Shown in pieces: positions 111 through 7,947 of a stretch of DNA of 8,096 nt. The DNA is from DASVDK01 sp036562265 [NCBI: Thermodesulfobacteriota bacterium] (lineage in GTDB: Bacteria > DASVDK01): NCBI GenBank assembly GCA_036562265.1, contig DATCKS010000185.1, positions 1-8,096 of the forward strand. Direction: 5' to 3'. Both the position numbers and the translations under genes were made by a program. The number at the start of each line of letters is the position of its first letter. Within the stretch, counting starts at the first letter, position 1. A model generated the notes under the pieces. It was given only the letters and a program-made list of their open reading frames with translations. It was not told where the DNA came from and did no database searches.

Positions 111-368
111 TTACTTCTTGCCCTGCTTCCCGCCGTCGTCGTCGCCGTCCCGCTTCGACGCTGTTGCCTTCTGTGGCTCGGCGACCGCCTCGACAGCCTT
201 GCCGCGCCGGATCAGCTCGCGGCCGAACGGCTCGGAAACCGTGTAGACCTTCCCAGGCTCGAGCGTCTCCGCATCCTCGCCGATTACGGCGCCGATCATC
301 CGGACCCGGATCGTTCTCGTTCCTATCGCCACGATGTCCCCCTTCGGGTTGAACGTGCTCAGCACCAT
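111..368 (-). CDS. Small head-region protein (85 aa), possible capsid accessory
   Basis: This 85-residue protein starts at ATG 368 and lies directly downstream of the capsid fusion. Residues 1-62 look like a compact beta-rich domain: a strand region IRVRMIGAVIG (20-30), then EPGKVYTVSEPFGRELIRRGKAVE (37-60, shown in part: PGKVYTVSEPF and ELIRRGKA). The pattern 'PG-x-x-Y-x-V ... ELI-x-x-GKA' recalls short proteins common near phage head genes. Residues 66-85 are a charged, probably disordered tail rich in Lys, Asp and Gly. In lambda this neighbourhood holds D (decoration) and FI; either role is possible by position, but I see no clear similarity to gpD. A purine stretch, AAGGGA (381-376 on the minus strand), ends 7 nt before the ATG and overlaps the arm of an upstream hairpin. 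Real gene: high confidence. Function: uncertain. Confidence 0.75.
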   Translation of the reverse strand: MVLSTFNPKGDIVAIGTRTIRVRMIGAVIGEDAETLEPGKVYTVSEPFGRELIRRGKAVEAVAEPQKATASKRDGDDDGGKQGKK

Positions 369-433: not shown

Positions 434-2926
434 TTAGATCAGGGACGCGTCCTTGATGACGGCGAACGCCTCGGGGTTCCGCAGCGCAACGCCGGCCATC
501 TGGAACGCCGTGACCTCGATGATCCCCTTCTTCTTCTGCGAATAGGGGTCGACAACGAGCTCGTAGGCCCCGAAGTAGCCGATGATGAGCTGCGACCACA
601 CGCCGAAGAGGATCGCGTGCAGGTTCGTGCCGCCGCCCTTCGTGAGGTTCGACGGAACCTGCGTCGAGACCTCGGCGCGGTAGCCGTTCATCTCGTTCCC
701 CTGCCACACGGGCATCCCGTTGGTCCCCTCGAACATCTGGGTGACCTTCAGGAGCCCACGGATCCCGGGCGTCGTGAGGTACGCCATCGCGCCGATGTCG
801 GCATCGTCGGACGCCACCTCCGTCTCGAGCTGGACGATATGCTCGAAGGTCGGTCGGCCGCCGTCCGTGCCGATCGGCACCACGTTGACCCCGCTGGTGT
901 TCAGGATCCCCGTGGGCGCGTCGCCGCCCGGCCCGTTGATCGCAGCCGCGTCGATCCCGAGCGCGGCGACCAACGCGAGATCGTTCTGCACGAACGCATC
1001 GACGTCGATGCTGCCGAGCGTGAGGAACTGGCGGGTGTAACCCGTCGTGGCGCTCCCGCTCTTCGGCGAGAGCAGCACCTGACCGATCGTGGCGTCAGTG
1101 TCTGCCAGGTCGCTGCCCGGGTTCTCCGGCCGCCAGGTCCACTGTGCGCTCCCAGTCTGCCGCGGGAAGGCGATCTCGGCATTGAGCCCGGAGATCGTCT
1201 GGGCCCCGAGTGCGACGACGCGCATCCGCGGCCGCAGCATGTCGATCAGGTCGCCAGGCTCCGTGAAGACCGCATTGCCGCCGGCCGTGGGCGAGAGCGT
1301 GTTCAGCGCCGCGAGACGCTGGCCGAGCGCCGGATCCACCGCGGAGACCCGAGCGAGAAGAGCCGGGTCGACCCGCAGACCGAACGACGCCGCATCGCGC
1401 GTCTTGATCCGGTGCGGGACGAAGATCCCGCCGCGGGGCTTGTAGCCCTTCGGCAGATTCTTCTCGATCTCCTCGGAGACCTCGCGCTCGAAGCCCGCCT
1501 CGATCCCGCCCTCGCTCTTGGGGAGCTGCGAGAGGATCGCCCGGCTGATGGAATAGCGGCGTGCCTCCTTCTCAGAGAGCTCGACCGCCGGCGCCGTCAT
1601 GGCCTGGAGGTTCTCCCGGGCCTCCCGGGCGAGCTCGAGCCCGATTTCGCCGACAGACTTCCCGCTGCGGATATATTCCGCAGCCCGATCGAGGACGCCA
1701 TGCGCCTGGCACAGCTCCACGATCTGCGCGGCCCGCTGCTGTTCCGCCTCGCGGTCCGCGCCCACCTGCACCGCCGGCGTGGCGGTGGCCGTCGCGGCCC
1801 CCGTCTGGGCCGCGGAGTCCTTCTGAGGATCCACGATCTCCTCCCTGGCCTCTGAGGCCGCTTCGGGTGCCGGGGATTCGTCCTCGTCCGTCGACCCGTC
1901 CCCGTCCAGGTCGACGTCGTCTTCGGGATCCTCGAGCGGATCCCCATCATCGTCATCGCGCTTGTCTTCCGGGGCCTCGGCCTCGAAGACGTGCGCGATC
2001 GGCCACGCCGCCCCGGGCGCGACCTGCACAAGCAGCTCGCCGGCGGCCGCCGTCGCCGTCGCGCGGACGGTGGCGCCGGTGTAGAGTCCGATCTGCCGGC
2101 GCCGGTCGACGCCGACGTCGGCGAGGACCTCCTCGAGCGTTGCGATCCGGTCCGCCATGCCGAGCTCGACCGCTTCCTCGGCGAGGACCGTCCGGCCCTG
2201 GCCCCACGCCTCGCTCATCACGACGTCCTCGGATACGCCCCGATGCCGCGCGACGTCGCGGACGAACGCCTCGTAGTAGACATCCATCTGGGCCTGTAGA
2301 TGCTCCCGCGCTTCGTCCGACAGCGGCTCGAAGGGGTTGCCCTCGGCTTTCCGGGCGCCGGCGCGGATGACCGTCGCCGTGATCCCTTCCTTCTCGAACA
2401 AGCGGCTGAACTCGAGGTGCACACCGTAGACTCCGATCGAGCCTACCTCGCCGCTTGGCGTCACGACAAACTCGCCGGCGGCCGTGCCGATCCAGTAGGC
2501 CGCGGACGCGGAAAGCGCGTTCGCGACGGCGATGATCCGCTTCGTCTTCCTGGCCTCGAAGATCTTCCGCGCGAGCTCAGGGACGCCGTAGACGGTGCCG
2601 CCCGGGCTGTTGATGTCGATTACGATCGTCTCGATCGCCTCGTCCTCGACCATCCGGTCGAACTCGAGCGCGATGTGCTCCGTCGATGCCGGCCACCGGC
2701 GGGCGCGGTGCAGGATCACCCCGGCGATCTGGAGCACGCCGACGCCCCGGCCGGCGGCCGCCGTCTCGCCGCGCATCTGCGCCATCGGCCCGAGCGCCGC
2801 CCGGATGTCGACGCCCTCTCCCCGGGCCTCCGCAGCGACAGCGTCGAGGAGGCGCTGGATGCGCGTCGGCTCGAGCGCGATCGGGCCTGAGAGGAGCGCC
2901 CGGACATCCTGGATCGTCGCGTTCAT
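434..2926 (-). CDS. S49 prohead protease - scaffold - HK97-fold major capsid fusion (830 aa)
   Basis: One uninterrupted frame encodes three head functions. Residues about 60-275 are an S49 (SppA / lambda gpC-like) serine peptidase: oxyanion-loop motif VIDINSPGG (102-110), probable nucleophile Ser141 in SASAAYW, GEVGSIGVYG (159-168), and probable general base Lys193 in RAGARKAEGNP. The Ser-Lys spacing of 52 equals that of Bacillus subtilis SppA (147/199). Residues about 315-352 are very acidic, followed by an Ala/Gln/Glu-rich helical region to about 500, which fits a scaffold or delta-like domain. Residues about 545-830 are an HK97-fold capsid protein (for example AGGNAVFTEPGDLIDMLRPR at 548-567, NGPGGDAPTGILN at 664-676, GYFGAYELVVDPY at 783-795). 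The ATG overlaps the portal stop (ATGA) and follows GGGAAGGG by 4 nt. Lambda splits these roles among C, Nu3 and E; protease-capsid fusions are known in other phages. Self-cleavage somewhere before about residue 548 is expected but the exact site cannot be read. Confidence 0.93.
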   Translation of the reverse strand: MNATIQDVRALLSGPIALEPTRIQRLLDAVAAEARGEGVDIRAALGPMAQMRGETAAAGRGVGVLQIAGVILHRARRWPASTEHIALEFDRMVEDEAIETIVIDINSPGGTVYGVPELARKIFEARKTKRIIAVANALSASAAYWIGTAAGEFVVTPSGEVGSIGVYGVHLEFSRLFEKEGITATVIRAGARKAEGNPFEPLSDEAREHLQAQMDVYYEAFVRDVARHRGVSEDVVMSEAWGQGRTVLAEEAVELGMADRIATLEEVLADVGVDRRRQIGLYTGATVRATATAAAGELLVQVAPGAAWPIAHVFEAEAPEDKRDDDDGDPLEDPEDDVDLDGDGSTDEDESPAPEAASEAREEIVDPQKDSAAQTGAATATATPAVQVGADREAEQQRAAQIVELCQAHGVLDRAAEYIRSGKSVGEIGLELAREARENLQAMTAPAVELSEKEARRYSISRAILSQLPKSEGGIEAGFEREVSEEIEKNLPKGYKPRGGIFVPHRIKTRDAASFGLRVDPALLARVSAVDPALGQRLAALNTLSPTAGGNAVFTEPGDLIDMLRPRMRVVALGAQTISGLNAEIAFPRQTGSAQWTWRPENPGSDLADTDATIGQVLLSPKSGSATTGYTRQFLTLGSIDVDAFVQNDLALVAALGIDAAAINGPGGDAPTGILNTSGVNVVPIGTDGGRPTFEHIVQLETEVASDDADIGAMAYLTTPGIRGLLKVTQMFEGTNGMPVWQGNEMNGYRAEVSTQVPSNLTKGGGTNLHAILFGVWSQLIIGYFGAYELVVDPYSQKKKGIIEVTAFQMAGVALRNPEAFAVIKDASLI

Positions 2927-4461
2927 CGGCCCTTCCCGTTCAGCGCCGGCGCGTGCCGGCCGTTGCCGTGGGCGCGGATCTCGAGCGGCTCGAGCTCGAG
3001 CGCGGCCCGCTCATCGTCCGACCGGCCCCCACCCGAGCGCGACACGTCAGTCGTGAGCTCGAGGCCCAGCTCGCCCGCCATCCGCTCGGCTTCCTCATGC
3101 TCCCGGAGCACGTCGTAGAAGTCGAGGCCCCGCTCGGCGGCCATCCGCTGGTAGCTGTCCAGCTTGAGCCGGAGCGCGATCGCTGCCGCGCGTAGGTCCT
3201 TCTCGGGGTCGACCCAGTCCCACCCCCGGGGCTGCCAGCGCCTCGAGCGGTAGCGCGTCCAGTCGCGGCTCGGAACGTCGATCGCCCCAACCGTGACGGA
3301 CCACTTCAGCCACGCGAGGAAGACCGGGTCGACATAGTGCCGCACGGTGAACCATTGGAGCCCTCGATAGACATCCCGGTCGGTGAGCTGTGCGGCGCGT
3401 AGGCTGTTGTAGCTGACGCCCTCCCAGTCGTTCGCGAGAGCGTTGTAGCTCGGGCCCAGACCGGAGGCGATGGACTGGAGCATCCCCTTCCGGAACTCCC
3501 GGAAGGCGTTCGTCGGGTGCTGCGGATCGAAGGGCTTGAACGTGTACCCAGGCGGGAGGACGTCGAAGACGCCTGGCTCCGCCTCCATCCGGATCGCCTC
3601 GGCCGCCTCGATGGCCCGGCGAACGACCGCGCCAGCCTCCTCGGACTTCTGCTCGAAGAATCCGCCCTTGGCGCTCGCCACCCGAGCGGCGACCAGCTCC
3701 GCCTCCTCGTATGCCCCGACCATATGAAGCGCGAGCATCACCGGCGCCAGCGGTGGCACGCCCCGGGTCTGCCCGACGCGCCGCGTCCGGTAGACGTGGA
3801 GGATCTGGTCAGCCGGGATTGCGACTCGCTCGCGCGCCGTCGCCTGGTAGTCGTGCGGGTGCCGCGTCCACAGGTGATACGCCACCGGCCGGCCCCAGGC
3901 GTTGAGCTCGACGCCCATCCGGACCTCGTTCCTGCGGGCGTCCGGCGCGCGGTTGTAGGATTCGTCAAGTTGGTCGGCGTCGAGGAACTGGATCGCGAAG
4001 CCGAACTCGTTATCCCACCCGGGGAGGAGCCGGACCAGGACCTCGCCATCCTGCGCCCACGTCTGCACCACCATCTGCTCGGCGTCGACACGGTGCATCC
4101 GGCCGTCCGCGGTGCACACCCCGACCGCGCTCCACTCCTCGTATGCCTCCTCGATCCGGTCACTCAGGCGCACGTCGAGCCCGCCGGTCGGTCTCTGCAC
4201 GGTCGACTGGAACCGGATCCCGTGATGCCCGATCACGTTCGCAGCGAGGAGCTCGAGGAAGCGGACCGCGATCGGGTTGTTGCGGCACAGCTCTCTCGAG
4301 CGCCGGCGCAGCGTCGTGAGGTCCCACCGGATCTCGTGGTCGGCGCTCCGGAGCACGGCGAGGACCCAATCCGCCGTCAGCCGGCTGAGCTCGGCGCCGG
4401 CGTACGCTGCGGCGGAGCGCCGCGGCCGCTGTAGCTCGAGCGCACGCGCGAGGGGGTTCAC
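2923..4461 (-). CDS. Portal protein, lambda gpB family (512 aa)
   Basis: The portal forms the dodecameric ring at one capsid vertex through which terminase pumps DNA and to which the connector and tail attach. Family signs (lambda-type portal) are seen in order: RRRSRELCRNNPIAVRFLE (52-70) followed by NVIGHHGIRFQS (75-86); DADQLD (161-166); the RVGQTRGVPPLAPVM segment (228-242); LGPSYNALANDWEGVSYNSL (335-354), matching the conserved 'LG-x-x-Y-x-x-L-x-x-D ... Y-x-S-x-R' core; and PRGWDWVDPEKD (411-422) near the C-terminal helices. Length is typical for the family. The start is GTG at 4461, not ATG, supported by an excellent ribosome site (GGAGGTGA) ending 3 nt upstream and by a GTGA overlap with the stop of the gene before it. 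Its own TGA overlaps the capsid-fusion ATG. The basic Gly/Arg/Asn tail (about 475-512) is probably disordered. Confidence 0.95.
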   Translation of the reverse strand: MNPLARALELQRPRRSAAAYAGAELSRLTADWVLAVLRSADHEIRWDLTTLRRRSRELCRNNPIAVRFLELLAANVIGHHGIRFQSTVQRPTGGLDVRLSDRIEEAYEEWSAVGVCTADGRMHRVDAEQMVVQTWAQDGEVLVRLLPGWDNEFGFAIQFLDADQLDESYNRAPDARRNEVRMGVELNAWGRPVAYHLWTRHPHDYQATARERVAIPADQILHVYRTRRVGQTRGVPPLAPVMLALHMVGAYEEAELVAARVASAKGGFFEQKSEEAGAVVRRAIEAAEAIRMEAEPGVFDVLPPGYTFKPFDPQHPTNAFREFRKGMLQSIASGLGPSYNALANDWEGVSYNSLRAAQLTDRDVYRGLQWFTVRHYVDPVFLAWLKWSVTVGAIDVPSRDWTRYRSRRWQPRGWDWVDPEKDLRAAAIALRLKLDSYQRMAAERGLDFYDVLREHEEAERMAGELGLELTTDVSRSGGGRSDDERAALELEPLEIRAHGNGRHAPALNGKGR

Positions 4462-4673
4462 CGCTCACCTCCGCGGCTGGTCCTGGTCAGCGCGTAGAGC
4501 CCCTCCGTCGCGAGCGTCCAAAGGAGCTTCCACCCGCCGAGGGAGAGGAAGAAGAGCCCCGCCGAGAGCGGCCAGACCTGCCAGACGAGTAGCTCGGCGA
4601 TCCCCCAGGTGAGGAGCGCCCACCCCGCGACGAACGACGCCGAGGTCAGGAGCTCAGCGCGGAGCCGGACCAT
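4458..4673 (-). CDS. Small two-span membrane protein (71 aa), unknown function
   Basis: This short gene sits between the gpW-like gene and the portal. The proposed start is ATG 4673, giving MVRLRAELL... and 71 residues. The frame stays open further upstream to 4958, but that part is an Arg/Ser-rich shadow of the neighbouring gene, so I exclude it; a TTG at about 4694 is a weaker alternative start. Two hydrophobic stretches, about 12-33 and 36-58, are rich in Trp, Leu and Ala and are joined by a short turn (QVWPLSAG). Positive residues at both ends (MVRLR, RTSRGGER) suggest that both termini face the cytoplasm. The gene begins 13 nt after the previous stop, and its last codons contain the portal's ribosome site, so the two are translationally coupled. 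No family is recognised. A holin-like, exclusion or membrane-docking role is possible but unsupported. Confidence 0.65.
   Translation of the reverse strand: MVRLRAELLTSASFVAGWALLTWGIAELLVWQVWPLSAGLFFLSLGGWKLLWTLATEGLYALTRTSRGGER
4465..4472 (-). promoter_or_regulatory. Strong ribosome-binding site of the portal gene
   Basis: The minus strand reads GGAGGTGA, an 8-base match to the anti-Shine-Dalgarno consensus, with GGAGG ending 6 nt before the GTG at 4461. It decides the portal start, because no ATG occurs nearby in that frame. It lies inside the last codons of the membrane-protein gene, which favours coupled re-initiation. Confidence 0.85.
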
Positions 4674-4686
4674 GCCATGCCAGAGC

Positions 4687-5217
4687 CTAGCGAGCGCGCG
4701 CAAAGACCACCTCCACACGCTGCCCGAACCGGCCGGGGTTCCGCTCCGCCGCCACCTCGGCGGCGTAGATCGCACGGAGCCGCACGAGCTCGCGCATCGG
4801 GATGTGCTTGACCGAGCGGCCGTTGATCGTGACCTCCTCGAGGTCGGACGTGAGCCGGCCTTCGATCGCCGCCTCGATCGCCTCGAGGACCCGCTCGGCG
4901 TGCGTCGCGCGCCCGACCGCTTCGATCGGATTCGCCCGAACCGCAAGGTCGCCCTCATAGACGGCGAAGCGATCCGGGCCCCGCTCGACGAAGCCGTACA
5001 GCCGGTACGTCCCCGCCTTCAGGTGTTCGGTGTCCGCCGCGGCGAGCCTGACCCGGTAGAGGTCGCCGGCGGCTTCGGCCTCGACGTCAAGGTCGACCGG
5101 GCCCCGGATCGCGTATTGCAGGGTCCAGCCGTCCGCCGGCGGATACGCCGCCAGCTCGCGGTCCCATTCGACCGTCGTTCCTGCGGTCAGCTCGGTCGGC
5201 TCTCGAGTCGGGGGCAT
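4687..5217 (-). CDS. gpW-like head-tail connector with extra N-terminal domain (176 aa)
   Basis: The gene lies between terminase large subunit and portal, the position of W in lambda. The C-terminal part (about 105-160) reads as a helix (AERVLEAIEAAIEGRL), a strand pair around VTINGRSVKHIP (129-140), and a second helix (MRELVRLRAIYAAEVAAER). This helix-hairpin-helix layout is that of gpW, which lambda uses to stabilise the packaged head and build the tail-attachment site. Lambda gpW has only about 68 residues; here about 100 residues precede it. That part contains PTELTAGTTVEWDRELAAYP (8-27 region) and DGWTLQYAIRGP, followed by alternating strands to about 95, and looks like an Ig-like beta domain seen in other prophage proteins at this locus. 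The ATG at 5217 has no clear ribosome site; the terminator U-tract lies just upstream. The family assignment rests on pattern and position. Confidence 0.7.
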   Translation of the reverse strand: MPPTREPTELTAGTTVEWDRELAAYPPADGWTLQYAIRGPVDLDVEAEAAGDLYRVRLAAADTEHLKAGTYRLYGFVERGPDRFAVYEGDLAVRANPIEAVGRATHAERVLEAIEAAIEGRLTSDLEEVTINGRSVKHIPMRELVRLRAIYAAEVAAERNPGRFGQRVEVVFARAR

Positions 5218-5351: not shown

Positions 5352-7373
5352 CTAGCGTCGCCAGCCGTGCACCCAACTGCTTCGGCGGATCGGACGGCCG
5401 GGGATTCGGACGGGGGCATCCTCGGCCTTCGGCACCTCAGGCGGCTGGCGCGCCTCCTCCGCGAGCCGCGCGAGGATGGACGTATCGCCGGACGTGTAGA
5501 TGTGCATCGCAGCGAGACAGAGGACCTCGAGGTCGATCGCCTCGTTTCGCTCCCGGAGCTGGATGTAGCGCCGCACCCGCCGGCCGCCCTCGGTGACCCA
5601 TTGCGCCTTTTCCGCCGTGAGCTGTGCGAAATATTCTGCGTCCGCGTCGGCGCAGAAGTGCATATAACCCGGCCCCGGGCGCTGGATCTTGAGCCGCGCG
5701 AATAGCAAGTCTTTGTACGCCGTCGTTCCGATCGTCCAGGGTTTCACCCCATGGCGGTTGCGGCGCTTCGGCCGCGAGAGCGGTTCCCGGGCTCGATGAT
5801 CGACGCCGATCGACGCGTAGACGCCGCGATGCTCCCGCTCCCGGACGAACTCGTACACCTGTGGCTTCAGGTACCCGGCATCGATCAGGGCGCATGCGAT
5901 CGACATCTCGGCGCCTTTCTCGTGGCGGTAGGTGCGGGTCAGCATCGCGTCGAGGCGCTGCCACGTCTCCGGTCGCTCCGGGTCGCCGTAGATGCGGCGA
6001 TGCGTGATGAGCCAACTTTGCTCGCCGGCGCCGAAGCCCCGCACGGCGAGCTCGAGCCGGTCGACCTGGACGTCGACGCCGGCGACCAGGAGCCCGACGC
6101 CATCTGGGACCTCCACGGGCTCGCCCTTGTCGTCGACGTAGACCTTCGCCCGGGCCGCGAGGGCCTCCGGCTTGACCTCGCCCTCGTCTTCCCATGTCTC
6201 GGCGAGGACCAGGTTCACGAACGCCTGGAGCTTCTCCGGCTTTCCCTGTGCCTCGAGCCATTCGCGGACCAGCCGCGGCCACTCCGACCCCGCCAGGAGC
6301 ACCACAAGGGCGCTGAAATGGAAGCCGAGCCTGCGCGCCTTCCCATCCCGGACAGGCTCGCCGTCGTCCGTCAGGTACTTTCCCCGCGGCACGATCGTGT
6401 ATTTGTGGCGCTCCTCGATGATGCAGCCATTCTCGCAGAGGTAGTAGACACTGTCCGGATCGTGACGCGTCTCGCGCTCGGTACCGCCGCACTCCGGGCA
6501 CGGGGCATTCAGGCCCTCGAGCTGCACCCCGCACGCTCGGCAATGCACCGTCTTCGTCCATTTGATCCCGTACGGGGTATCAGGTCCGCCCCATCGGAGC
6601 ACCTGGTACTTCCCGCAATGGGGGCACGGGACATGGAACCGACCGTGCCTCTCCATCGACAGCCGGAGGCGCTCGATCTTCGAGTGTCCCTTGACCTTCG
6701 GCGTCGAGACCCAGACGAATTTCCGGTTCCAGAAGCGGTCGGCGCGCTTCTTCGCAAGGGCGACCTGGTCACCTTCATCGTCGATTTGATCGTCCCAGGC
6801 GTCGAGCTCATCGCCGAAGACGTAGCGGGCCGGGACCATGCGGAACGCGCGGCCACTCGCGGCGCCGACGATTCCGAGCGACCCGTGCGGGAAGCTCTTC
6901 TCGAGGATCGTCGCCTCGCCGGTCCTGGCCTTCGAGTCCGCCACCAGCCGCGAAAGCGACGGCGTCGCGCGGATCATCGGCTGGAGCTTCTTCTTGCTGA
7001 ACTTCTCCGCCTCTTCCCGGGTCGGCAGAATGACCAGGATCGGCCCCGGGTCATGTTCGATTGCATACCCGATCGGGTTCAGGATCGCGCCCTCGGTCGC
7101 CCCCGCCTGACTCGGCTTCTGAACGACGACTTCCTCGACCGACGGATCCCAGATCGCGTCCATGATCTCGATCAGGTAGGGGACCCGCTCGGCGCGGTAG
7201 CGGCCGGGCTCGCTCTCCCCCTTGCCGAACTCGCGGTTCTTTTCGGCCCATTCGCGGATGGTGAGGTCGGGCGGGAGCGCGAAGGCGGACCGGAAGACGG
7301 CGGCCTCGACGGCGGCAGCCCGGCGCCGCGCCGCGGCGAGGTCAATCGGAGGCGTCCTCGTCTTCACCAGCAT
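5352..7373 (-). CDS. Terminase large subunit, GpA family (673 aa)
   Basis: This is the ATP-driven packaging motor and nuclease that cuts concatemeric phage DNA and pumps it through the portal. In the N-terminal ATPase a divergent Walker A segment VVVQKPSQAGATEG (82-95) is followed by a Walker B-like ARYVFGDELDAWDD (182-195, acidic pair Asp188-Glu189) and a coupling motif VWVSTPK (220-226). A zinc-ribbon region carries four Cys pairs: CPHC (250-253), CRAC (278-281), CPEC (292-295) and CENGC (313-317). The C-terminal nuclease half shows AGVDVQVDRLELAVRGFG (431-448, Asp434 and Asp438), ALIDAGY (495-501, Asp498) and RNEAIDLEVLCLAA (609-622, Asp614), as in GpA proteins. The ATG at 7373 lies 32 nt inside the small-subunit gene, a coupled arrangement, with only a weak ribosome site (AGCAGG). 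Length is close to the family norm plus the additional Cys insertion. Confidence 0.95.
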   Translation of the reverse strand: MLVKTRTPPIDLAAARRRAAAVEAAVFRSAFALPPDLTIREWAEKNREFGKGESEPGRYRAERVPYLIEIMDAIWDPSVEEVVVQKPSQAGATEGAILNPIGYAIEHDPGPILVILPTREEAEKFSKKKLQPMIRATPSLSRLVADSKARTGEATILEKSFPHGSLGIVGAASGRAFRMVPARYVFGDELDAWDDQIDDEGDQVALAKKRADRFWNRKFVWVSTPKVKGHSKIERLRLSMERHGRFHVPCPHCGKYQVLRWGGPDTPYGIKWTKTVHCRACGVQLEGLNAPCPECGGTERETRHDPDSVYYLCENGCIIEERHKYTIVPRGKYLTDDGEPVRDGKARRLGFHFSALVVLLAGSEWPRLVREWLEAQGKPEKLQAFVNLVLAETWEDEGEVKPEALAARAKVYVDDKGEPVEVPDGVGLLVAGVDVQVDRLELAVRGFGAGEQSWLITHRRIYGDPERPETWQRLDAMLTRTYRHEKGAEMSIACALIDAGYLKPQVYEFVREREHRGVYASIGVDHRAREPLSRPKRRNRHGVKPWTIGTTAYKDLLFARLKIQRPGPGYMHFCADADAEYFAQLTAEKAQWVTEGGRRVRRYIQLRERNEAIDLEVLCLAAMHIYTSGDTSILARLAEEARQPPEVPKAEDAPVRIPGRPIRRSSWVHGWRR

Positions 7374-7947
7374 CGGCCTGCTGTTCGATCCGGTCCGCCT
7401 CGCGAAGGAGCTCCTCGAGGAGTTCGTTCACGAGCGTCTTGAGCGTGGCGAGCCGGTCGGTGTCCGTCTCGCATGCGCCGAGGCGGGGCGTCCAAGCGCC
7501 GGGGATGTTCTTCAGCCGGCCGGCGAGCCGGCCAACGATCCGCTCGAGCCGCTCGCGGTGCATGGAGAGCGGGATCAGCTCGCCCTCGAGCTGCGCCACC
7601 TCGAGCTCACGCCGGCGGGCGAGCGCGACCTCCTTCCGCCGGCGGGCCTCGGCGTAGCTGATGACCTCCTCGCCCGCCGGTTCCCCCGCCGGGTCGGTCG
7701 GGCGCCCCGAGGGGGGAACCGGTTCCCCCTTCCGGGTCACTCCCGAGATGCCCCGGCCGCTCGCCGCAGCGACCCGGTCGCCGGGCCAGGCCGCATCGGC
7801 GGCCGCAACGTCGATCAATCCGTCCGGGCCGGCCTGAATCTGGCCTCGCGCAATGGCTTTCCGGACCGCTGCGGGGGTGCCGCCGGGGAGCCCGAGCGCC
7901 GCTCGGTGACGGGCGTACGCCTTGATGCCGAGGCGGGCAGGTTCCAC
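7342..7947 (-). CDS. Terminase small subunit (201 aa)
   Basis: The small subunit recognises the packaging site and delivers DNA to the large subunit. Residues about 1-55 form a DNA-binding-like helix-turn-helix: AYARHRAALGL, then GTPAAVRKAIARGQI (23-37), then DGLIDVAAADAAW (42-54), the pattern of an Nu1-like excisionase-type winged helix. A Pro/Gly-rich linker (about 62-95) leads to a long charged helix, SYAEARRRKEVALARRRELE (97-116), and a C-terminal helical region ending in an acidic tail (EDEDASD), which suits oligomerisation and contact with the large subunit. The start is GTG at 7947: an in-frame TGA lies two codons upstream, and GGAGGG (7960-7955) sits 7 nt before it. It overlaps the large-subunit gene by 32 nt. 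Family assignment rests on position plus these patterns; sequence conservation in small subunits is weak. Confidence 0.85.
   Translation of the reverse strand: MEPARLGIKAYARHRAALGLPGGTPAAVRKAIARGQIQAGPDGLIDVAAADAAWPGDRVAAASGRGISGVTRKGEPVPPSGRPTDPAGEPAGEEVISYAEARRRKEVALARRRELEVAQLEGELIPLSMHRERLERIVGRLAGRLKNIPGAWTPRLGACETDTDRLATLKTLVNELLEELLREADRIEQQADAGEDEDASD

What the first reader, a model, noticed from the sequence alone, without database searches (positions are those of the whole stretch)
434..2926. Protease, scaffold and major capsid protein fused in one 830-codon frame
S49 peptidase signs (Ser141, Lys193, spaced by 52 as in Bacillus subtilis SppA), an acidic/helical linker and an HK97-fold capsid domain lie in one frame with no stop or frameshift. 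Lambda encodes these roles as C, Nu3 and E with D in between. A 1:1 fusion means about 415 protease copies per T=7 head if every subunit is full length, so the prohead must tolerate or remove them. Protease-capsid fusions are known in phage annotation, so the architecture is unusual but not new; what may be distinctive is the S49 rather than S78-type domain together with this linker.
Basis: partly seen in the sequence, partly recalled or inferred. Interest (0 to 1): 0.6.

Follow-up and report, generated by a model that had tools for sequence, protein, structure and literature searches.

The report
Capsid gene nested in protease fusion
One phage gene joins an S49-type protease to the major capsid protein, and a conserved internal start signal suggests that it also makes the capsid protein alone, so that only some shell subunits would carry the protease.

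Summary
Window 434-2926, minus strand, is one open 830-codon frame: S49 peptidase domain (residues 64-268, Ser141/Lys193), acidic linker, HK97-fold capsid domain (560-825). It is no artefact: the architecture recurs in other contigs. Protease-capsid fusions are known (NCBIfam NF045540/NF045541; a ClpP type in Paracoccus prophages). The S49 fusions form two groups inside the S78 fusions (one clade rejected, p-AU 0.001), so the protease changed at least twice. At the junction lies an in-frame GTG (residue 365) with a strong Shine-Dalgarno. Seven of eight aligned S49 fusions have a start in that column, the eighth one column on. Over 123 fusion genes, 79 have an in-frame junction ATG with a good Shine-Dalgarno, against 17 and 1 in the other frames and a mean of 28 in codon shuffles. 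Likeliest mechanism: a nested gene making a 466-aa capsid precursor plus fewer protease-capsid subunits, as lambda C/Nu3 does. That both products are made is inferred; I had no protein data.

The parts
434..2926 (-). Fusion gene: S49 protease + linker + HK97-fold major capsid protein, 830 aa
2123..2737 (-). S49 (SppA-like) protease domain, residues 64-268
2504..2506 (-). Catalytic Ser141 codon (motif SAAYW)
   Evidence: invariant in 12 S49 domains; position
2348..2350 (-). Catalytic Lys193 codon
   Evidence: invariant in 12 S49 domains; position
1847..1972 (-). Acidic linker, residues 319-360 (21 of 42 D/E); upstream of the internal start, so on the full-length product only
1840..1846 (-). Internal Shine-Dalgarno AGGGAGG, 5 nt before the internal GTG, -10.4 kcal/mol
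1832..1834 (-). Proposed internal start codon GTG, residue 365 (among 8 aligned S49 fusions: ATG in 6, GTG in 2; same column in 7, one column on in L219)
434..1834 (-). Proposed nested capsid gene, 466 aa precursor
1610..1774 (-). Confidently predicted helices (residues 385-439), delta-domain or scaffold-like
   Evidence: AlphaFold2 model
1280..1285 (-). Predicted maturation cut A548|G549 (by homology with R4C, where the solved chain maps by numbering to residues 362-629 of a 629-aa precursor)
   Evidence: inferred
452..1249 (-). HK97-fold capsid domain, residues 560-825
   Evidence: Pfam; fold match to R4C capsid 8gta
2923..4461 (-). Lambda-type portal protein, overlapping the fusion gene by 4 nt (ATGA)
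4458..4673 (-). 71-aa hydrophobic protein, likely two membrane helices
   Evidence: membrane helices read by eye
4687..5217 (-). Head-tail joining protein (adaptor position as in R4C_004)
   Evidence: phrog_5774; R4C order
5352..7373 (-). Terminase large subunit, gpA type
7342..7947 (-). Terminase small subunit
   Evidence: phrog_57

Best explanation
This is a head-maturation gene with two nested products. Translation from the ATG at 2926 gives an 830-aa S49 protease-capsid precursor. Translation from the in-frame GTG at 1834, with its own strong Shine-Dalgarno, gives a 466-aa capsid precursor with a helical delta-like N-terminus and no protease. The two co-assemble through their identical capsid parts, so the fusion carries the protease into the prohead at sub-stoichiometric dose. 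The Ser141/Lys193 protease then cuts near A548|G549, leaving a mature capsid protein of about 282 aa and removing protease, acidic linker and delta region. In evolution, protease cassettes of the S49 and S78 types replaced each other upstream of the kept nested capsid gene more than once. Shown: domain content, catalytic residues, conservation and enrichment of the internal start, tree positions. Inferred: that both products are made, their ratio, the cut site and in-trans cleavage.
For: Window: the internal GTG has the strongest SD of the 33 in-frame ATG/GTG codons scored (-10.4 kcal/mol), against -5.4 for the gene's own start. In the alignment of 8 S49 fusions a start codon (ATG 6, GTG 2) stands in one column in 7 and one column on in L219, inside otherwise gappy sequence. 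Set test on 123 representatives thinned from 152 distinct fusion genes: in-frame junction ATG with SD <= -5 in 79 genes, against 17 and 1 in the other two frames and a codon-shuffle mean of 28 (maximum 41 of 200 shuffles). Junction ATGs in frame: 80 of 187 have such an SD, against 161 of 1675 in the protease and capsid parts. The predicted nested precursor (466 aa) is near the length of two free capsid proteins of this kind (438 and 431 aa). It folds well as an HK97-type protein (pLDDT 83.5; best PDB match R4C capsid 8gta). In R4C the 268-residue 8gta chain maps by numbering to the end of the 629-aa gene product. The window is similar to the S78 fusions (140 of 140 hit) from about residue 393 onward (median; 1 of 140 has a match starting before residue 250). 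The window's kind of S49 fusion is split into two groups within S78 fusions; one clade is rejected, p-AU 0.00124. In L324 a single in-phase stop divides S78 and capsid frames, and the capsid ATG with SD -9.5 lies 12 codons after it.
Against: No protein or ribosome data. Gene by gene the signal is weak: codon-shuffle p <= 0.05 in only 20 of 123 genes (window 0.027), and at SD <= -9 with ATG or GTG the observed number (11) does not exceed the shuffles (11.9). 44 of 123 genes lack a junction ATG with SD <= -5. S-CBS3, Mano and Alexa show no junction start among their five best. Of the three S49 fusions with Phage_capsid_4, none has a junction start as its strongest; L160 (GTG356, -7.6) and L155 (ATG393, -6.4) have candidates ranking third, L136 only a TTG (not tested against a null). 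SD strength is no sure guide here: large terminase and adaptor, at the starts I assigned, score 0 and -1.7, portal -10.6. Frame +2 is a poor control because it has only 9 junction ATGs, against 187 in frame and 139 in +1. The acidic linker is rich in GAG codons, which look like SDs by chance; shuffles keep those codons but do not remove the doubt. In the window the start is GTG, not ATG, and ATG443 (-7.4) is a second candidate. The 8gta chain may have been cut by the depositors.
Confidence: 0.65

Rival explanations
1. Only the full-length 830-aa fusion is made. All roughly 415 subunits of a T=7 head carry the protease inside the prohead, and each is cut free in cis or in trans; the internal SD is a by-product of the Glu-rich linker (GAG GAG codons).
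For: The frame is open throughout. Portal and fusion genes overlap as ATGA. Linkers give SD-like sequence by chance: codon shuffles still give a mean of 28 of 123 genes with an SD-ATG, and at SD <= -9 there is no excess over shuffles.
Against: The excess of in-frame SD-ATG over shuffles and frame +1, the aligned start in the eight S49 fusions and the start with SD just after the stop in the unfused L324 and L328.
Confidence: 0.23
2. The S49 domain is not a maturation protease but a structural or targeting appendage; head maturation is done by another enzyme.
For: No activity data exist; the SppA equivalog cut-off is not reached.
Against: Ser141 and Lys193 are invariant in 12 S49 domains. The gene sits right after the portal, where prohead proteases sit. 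The domain takes the place of S78 prohead proteases in related genes. No other protease was matched among the seven window ORFs scanned.
Confidence: 0.05
3. The fusion is an assembly or sequencing artefact that hides a stop or frameshift.
For: A single contig was given and no reads were seen.
Against: The same S49-capsid fusion occurs in L038, L047, L199, L200, L219, L230 and, with other capsid types, in L023, L106, L136, L155, L160. GC3 is 0.87-0.93 in all four segments of the gene.
Confidence: 0.01

Closest known systems
NCBIfam NF045540 (ClpP-like prohead protease/major capsid fusion) and NF045541 (prohead protease/major capsid fusion)
   Same: Protease and major capsid protein in one frame
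   Different: The window gives 19.8 bits to NF045541 (cut-off 525) and no NF045540 hit at E <= 1. Its protease is S49 and its capsid domain of the PF05065 type. R4C (175.5 bits) and S-CBS3 (133.1 bits) also stay below the NF045541 cut-off.
S78-type fusions of the same capsid clade: S-CBS3 gp04, PT1, PPpW-3, RcCronus, R4C_006
   Same: Same place after the portal, with a terminase upstream and a related capsid part; a junction start with SD in several
   Different: Protease of the S78 kind (Pfam S78 above cut-off in S-CBS3, PT1, PPpW-3; only sub-threshold HK97 prohead protease hits in R4C and RcCronus)
ClpP (S14)-gpT capsid fusions of Paracoccus prophages (PMC6536676)
   Same: Published protease-capsid fusion in 17 prophages, read by its authors as a fusion of the two genes
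   Different: S14 protease domain and Mu gpT-type capsid; the passages I saw do not mention an internal start
Lambda C/Nu3 (and herpesvirus UL26/UL26.5); both recalled, no call
   Same: In-frame nested, 3'-coterminal product lacking the protease, which outnumbers the protease-bearing one (recalled)
   Different: There the nested product is a scaffold; here it would be the capsid protein itself, scaffold-like region included

Membership tests
Peptidase family S49 | Profile match above Pfam gathering score | tested here: met
   111.5 bits against 24.9
Peptidase family S49 | Ser/Lys catalytic dyad, 52 residues apart | tested here: met
   Ser141 and Lys193; invariant in 12 domains. That SppA has this spacing is recalled. 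In the two best PDB chains the position of Lys193 holds Ala; I recall that such constructs carry an inactivating mutation.
Peptidase family S49 | Proteolytic activity | not testable with these tools
   no experiment
SppA signal peptide peptidase (TIGR00706) | Equivalog cut-off score | tested here: not met
   133.6 bits against 155.45
HK97-fold major capsid protein (PF05065) | Profile match and fold | tested here: met
   103.4 bits against 24.2; model pLDDT 83.5, best PDB match 8gta at E 8e-21
NCBIfam protease/capsid fusion families NF045540, NF045541 | Curated whole-protein cut-off | tested here: not met
   19.8 bits against 525 for NF045541; NF045540 not listed
Nested protease gene (lambda C/Nu3 kind) | Conserved in-frame internal start with ribosome-binding site upstream of the non-protease part | tested here: met
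   at the level of the gene set; in the S49 fusions; many single genes lack it (44 of 123)
Nested protease gene (lambda C/Nu3 kind) | Both products made in the infected cell | not testable with these tools
   no protein data

The most novel reading that the evidence does not exclude
Protease-capsid fusion genes of tailed phages are commonly nested genes. A kept internal ribosome-binding site makes the bulk capsid precursor, while stopless read-in from an exchangeable protease cassette (S78 or S49, swapped repeatedly at the junction) makes a minority of protease-bearing capsid subunits that load the protease into the prohead. This would be a capsid-level counterpart of lambda C/Nu3 and herpesvirus UL26/UL26.5.
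Probability: 0.6. Interest if true: 0.68.

Novelty: new variant of a known kind. Interest (0 to 1): 0.6.

Why it matters
Phages with a protease-capsid fusion pose a dosage puzzle: a protease on every subunit of a shell. A nested start would solve it with a device known from lambda and herpesviruses (recalled), and would change how 600-900-aa 'major capsid proteins' are annotated. The repeated S49/S78 change within one fused frame shows how far the protease is interchangeable while the capsid gene stays. Both points can be tested in cultured phages with S78 fusions, such as R4C.

Tried and rejected
AlphaFold2 of the full 830-aa chain with 8 sequences gave a poor model (pLDDT 42.3) and was not used. 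The S49 domain tree is poorly resolved (30 of 58 inner branches open, bootstrap not settled). It puts the window with L038, whereas the capsid tree puts it with L199 and L200; this fits cassette exchange but I do not lean on it. The residue after junction SD-ATGs is S/T/A/D/E in 76% of 79, against 34% of 1008 after Met in the capsid fold; I dropped it as evidence because linker composition alone could give it. The genome-contig scan (best 80 of 410 relatives kept) gave no PF05065 fusion; of its S49 ORFs I scanned seven long ones with Pfam (which also held L035 from viral contigs), and three proved to be fusions with Phage_capsid_4. The window's own genome is not held.

Literature: ten searches, of which 11, 19, 38, 66 and 85 returned nothing. 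I judged from listings and starts of abstracts, plus passages or sections of six papers (PMC10276861, PMC10132091, PMC7411985, PMC7996906, PMC6536676, PMC10305713). In these I saw no report of an S49-capsid fusion or of an internal capsid start in such genes; most listed papers were not opened, and the library lacks most subscription journals. PMC10305713 says only that protease and capsid genes are fused in some cases. Liu and Mushegian 2004 on prohead protease displacement is not held; I saw its title in reference lists. My S78 class rests on a profile built here from five fusions.

Full report
OBSERVATION. The frame is on the minus strand: ATG at 2926, stop at 434-436, 830 aa with no internal stop. 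Pfam finds Peptidase_S49 (residues 126-269) and Phage_capsid (560-825), both far above their cut-offs; NCBIfam adds SppA_dom (64-268, below the SppA equivalog cut-off) and major_cap_HK97. Ser141 and Lys193 are in place and invariant in 12 aligned S49 domains. The best sequence relatives with solved structures are SppA proteases for the N-terminal part and the R4C capsid (8gta) for the C-terminal part. Residues 319-360 are half Asp/Glu. Neighbours, minus strand: small and large terminase (gpA type), head-tail joining protein, a small hydrophobic protein, lambda-type portal, the fusion, then an 85-aa ORF.

THE FUSION IS REAL AND HAS RELATIVES. In 50,697 phage records no place covers 80% of the fusion (923 records match in part, 40 listed). 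Five of the near capsid relatives that I opened lie at the same point of the operon as one gene, but with an N-terminal half of the S78 kind: S-CBS3 gp04, PT1, PPpW-3, RcCronus, R4C_006. Pfam S78 passes its cut-off in the first three; in RcCronus and R4C only sub-threshold HK97 prohead protease hits appear. Separate S49 and capsid genes also occur (PG1). S49-based scans of viral contigs gave 104 loci (24 and the best 80 of 596), of which 4 are S49-capsid fusions: L023, L038, L047, L106. A scan of genome contigs (best 80 of 410 kept) gave no PF05065 fusion but three S49 fusions with another capsid family, Phage_capsid_4: L136, L155, L160. Two capsid-based scans, each capped at 80 loci, then gave 160 capsid ORFs with the window: 139 fused to S78, 9 to S49 (one, L225, on the same contig as L047), 9 cut by a contig end, 3 separate. 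The second scan was seeded with S78 fusions; in the first, seeded with S49 fusions, 67 of 79 new loci are still S78 fusions and 8 S49 fusions. In this sample of the capsid clade fusion is the rule and S78 the usual partner.

PROTEASE EXCHANGE. In a tree of 66 capsid domains (48 of 140 S78 fusions: the first 48 of 68 picked for diversity) the S49 fusions of the window's kind fall into two groups, (window, L199, L200) and (L038, L230, L047, L223, L219, L220), both among S78 fusions; the second lies with six S78 fusions in a branch of 100/99 support. Holding these nine rows as one clade is rejected (p-AU 0.00124), and with L023 and L106 more strongly (8e-6). The set was named before this tree, but a smaller earlier tree had hinted at the split with weak support (84/37). 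Two gains of S49, or one gain and a return to S78, would both fit. The window matches the S78 fusions (140 of 140) from about residue 393 onward (median; 25-75% range 381-396), with one match that starts before residue 250. The exchanged unit is therefore the protease upstream of the junction. Displacement of prohead protease genes is a known theme (Liu and Mushegian 2004, title seen only); its occurrence inside a fused frame is what I add.

THE INTERNAL START. The window's junction holds CAGGGAGGAGATCGTG: a 7-base SD match at -10.4 kcal/mol, 5 nt before an in-frame GTG (residue 365, nt 1834-1832), the strongest of 33 in-frame ATG/GTG codons scored. The gene's own start scores -5.4. In the alignment of eight S49 fusions (L047 and L223 near-identical) a start codon, ATG in 6 and GTG in 2, stands in column 482 in seven and in column 483 in L219, with SD energies from -5.9 to -10.4, among variable sequence; L023 and L106 have a like GTG (-8.8, -8.4). 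It ranks first to third among the in-frame ATG/GTG codons of each of these ten genes. For a set test, 152 distinct fusion proteins were thinned to 123 representatives (114 S78, 9 S49). Counting ATG only, SD <= -5 in the junction: 79 genes in frame, 17 and 1 in the other frames, 28.0 in codon shuffles (maximum 41 of 200). At <= -7: 35 against 3, 0 and 8.1 (maximum 18). The junctions hold 187, 139 and 9 ATGs in the three frames, so frame +1 is a fair control and frame +2 is not. Of the 187 in-frame junction ATGs 80 have such an SD, against 161 of 1675 elsewhere in the genes. 116 of 123 genes have an in-frame ATG there, and the distance from the SD-ATG to the fold is 127-209 residues (median 163). 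Two free capsid proteins of this kind have 438 and 431 aa. Two near-identical loci, L324 and L328, show the separate state: S78 and capsid frames in the same phase, one TAG between them, the capsid ATG with SD -9.5 twelve codons on; they fall among the S78 fusions, with weak support.

AGAINST IT. Single genes rarely reach significance (20 of 123 at 0.05; window 0.027), and with GTG included the excess vanishes at <= -9 (11 against 11.9). 44 of 123 genes lack a good ATG site. S-CBS3, Mano and Alexa have no junction start among their five best, and in the three Phage_capsid_4 fusions it is at best third. SDs of the window's other genes vary: portal -10.6, downstream ORF -5.0, adaptor -1.7, large terminase 0 at the starts I assigned. 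Glu-rich linkers make SD-like sequence by chance; the shuffles address this but do not abolish it. I had no protein data.

MECHANISM. Most likely the gene yields a 466-aa capsid precursor in bulk and an 830-aa protease-capsid precursor as a minority, which co-assemble. The protease then cuts near A548|G549. The cut site is inferred from R4C: the chain deposited as 8gta has 268 residues and maps by numbering to residues 362-629 of a 629-aa gene product, starting after TATA at GGVL, which aligns with SPTA|GGNA here. The R4C paper (one section and passages seen) reports 415 copies of that gene's product in a T=7 head; the terms protease and cleav do not occur in its main text. The nested product is predicted to fold well (pLDDT 83.5) with helices at residues 385-439, and its best PDB match is that capsid. 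The acidic linker lies upstream of the internal start, so it would be on the fusion product only.

NOVELTY. Protease-capsid fusions are known: NCBIfam has two such families, and a Paracoccus study describes ClpP-gpT fusions in 17 prophages (passages seen). In ten searches of the held library, judged from listings and from passages of six papers, I did not see an S49-capsid fusion or an internal capsid start in such genes. I rate it a new variant of a known kind. The comparisons with lambda C/Nu3 and herpesvirus UL26/UL26.5 are recalled.

Noticed in passing
window 4458-4673, minus strand: A 71-aa hydrophobic protein (probably two membrane helices) between the head-tail joining gene and the portal gene; similar small proteins precede the portal in L038 (1-333) and L023 (67-384).
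   Followed up: partly
L324 2199-4196 and L328 2568-4565: S78 protease and capsid frames in the same phase, divided by a single TAG, with the capsid start and strong SD 12 codons after it: a natural separate state of the fusion.
   Followed up: partly
L136 5823-8987, L155 6677-9373, L160 6662-9511: S49 protease fused to a different capsid family (Phage_capsid_4) in a Chloroflexia MAG, Planctomycetes bacterium Pan216 and a Pirellulales MAG: a third kind of S49-capsid fusion.
   Followed up: partly
L106 2880-4952: Two ORFs, the first with repeated segments, lie between portal and fusion gene; in the window, L038, L047 and L023 the fusion follows the portal directly.
   Followed up: no
window 111-368, minus strand: An 85-aa ORF after the fusion gene with weak similarity to phrog_2616 and DUF7302; function unknown.
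   Followed up: no
L023 3068-3257: The fusion of L023 carries an extra segment (from SYPHHW to HHRRALG) between the S49 domain and the acidic linker that the other four fusions of alignment A3 lack.
   Followed up: no
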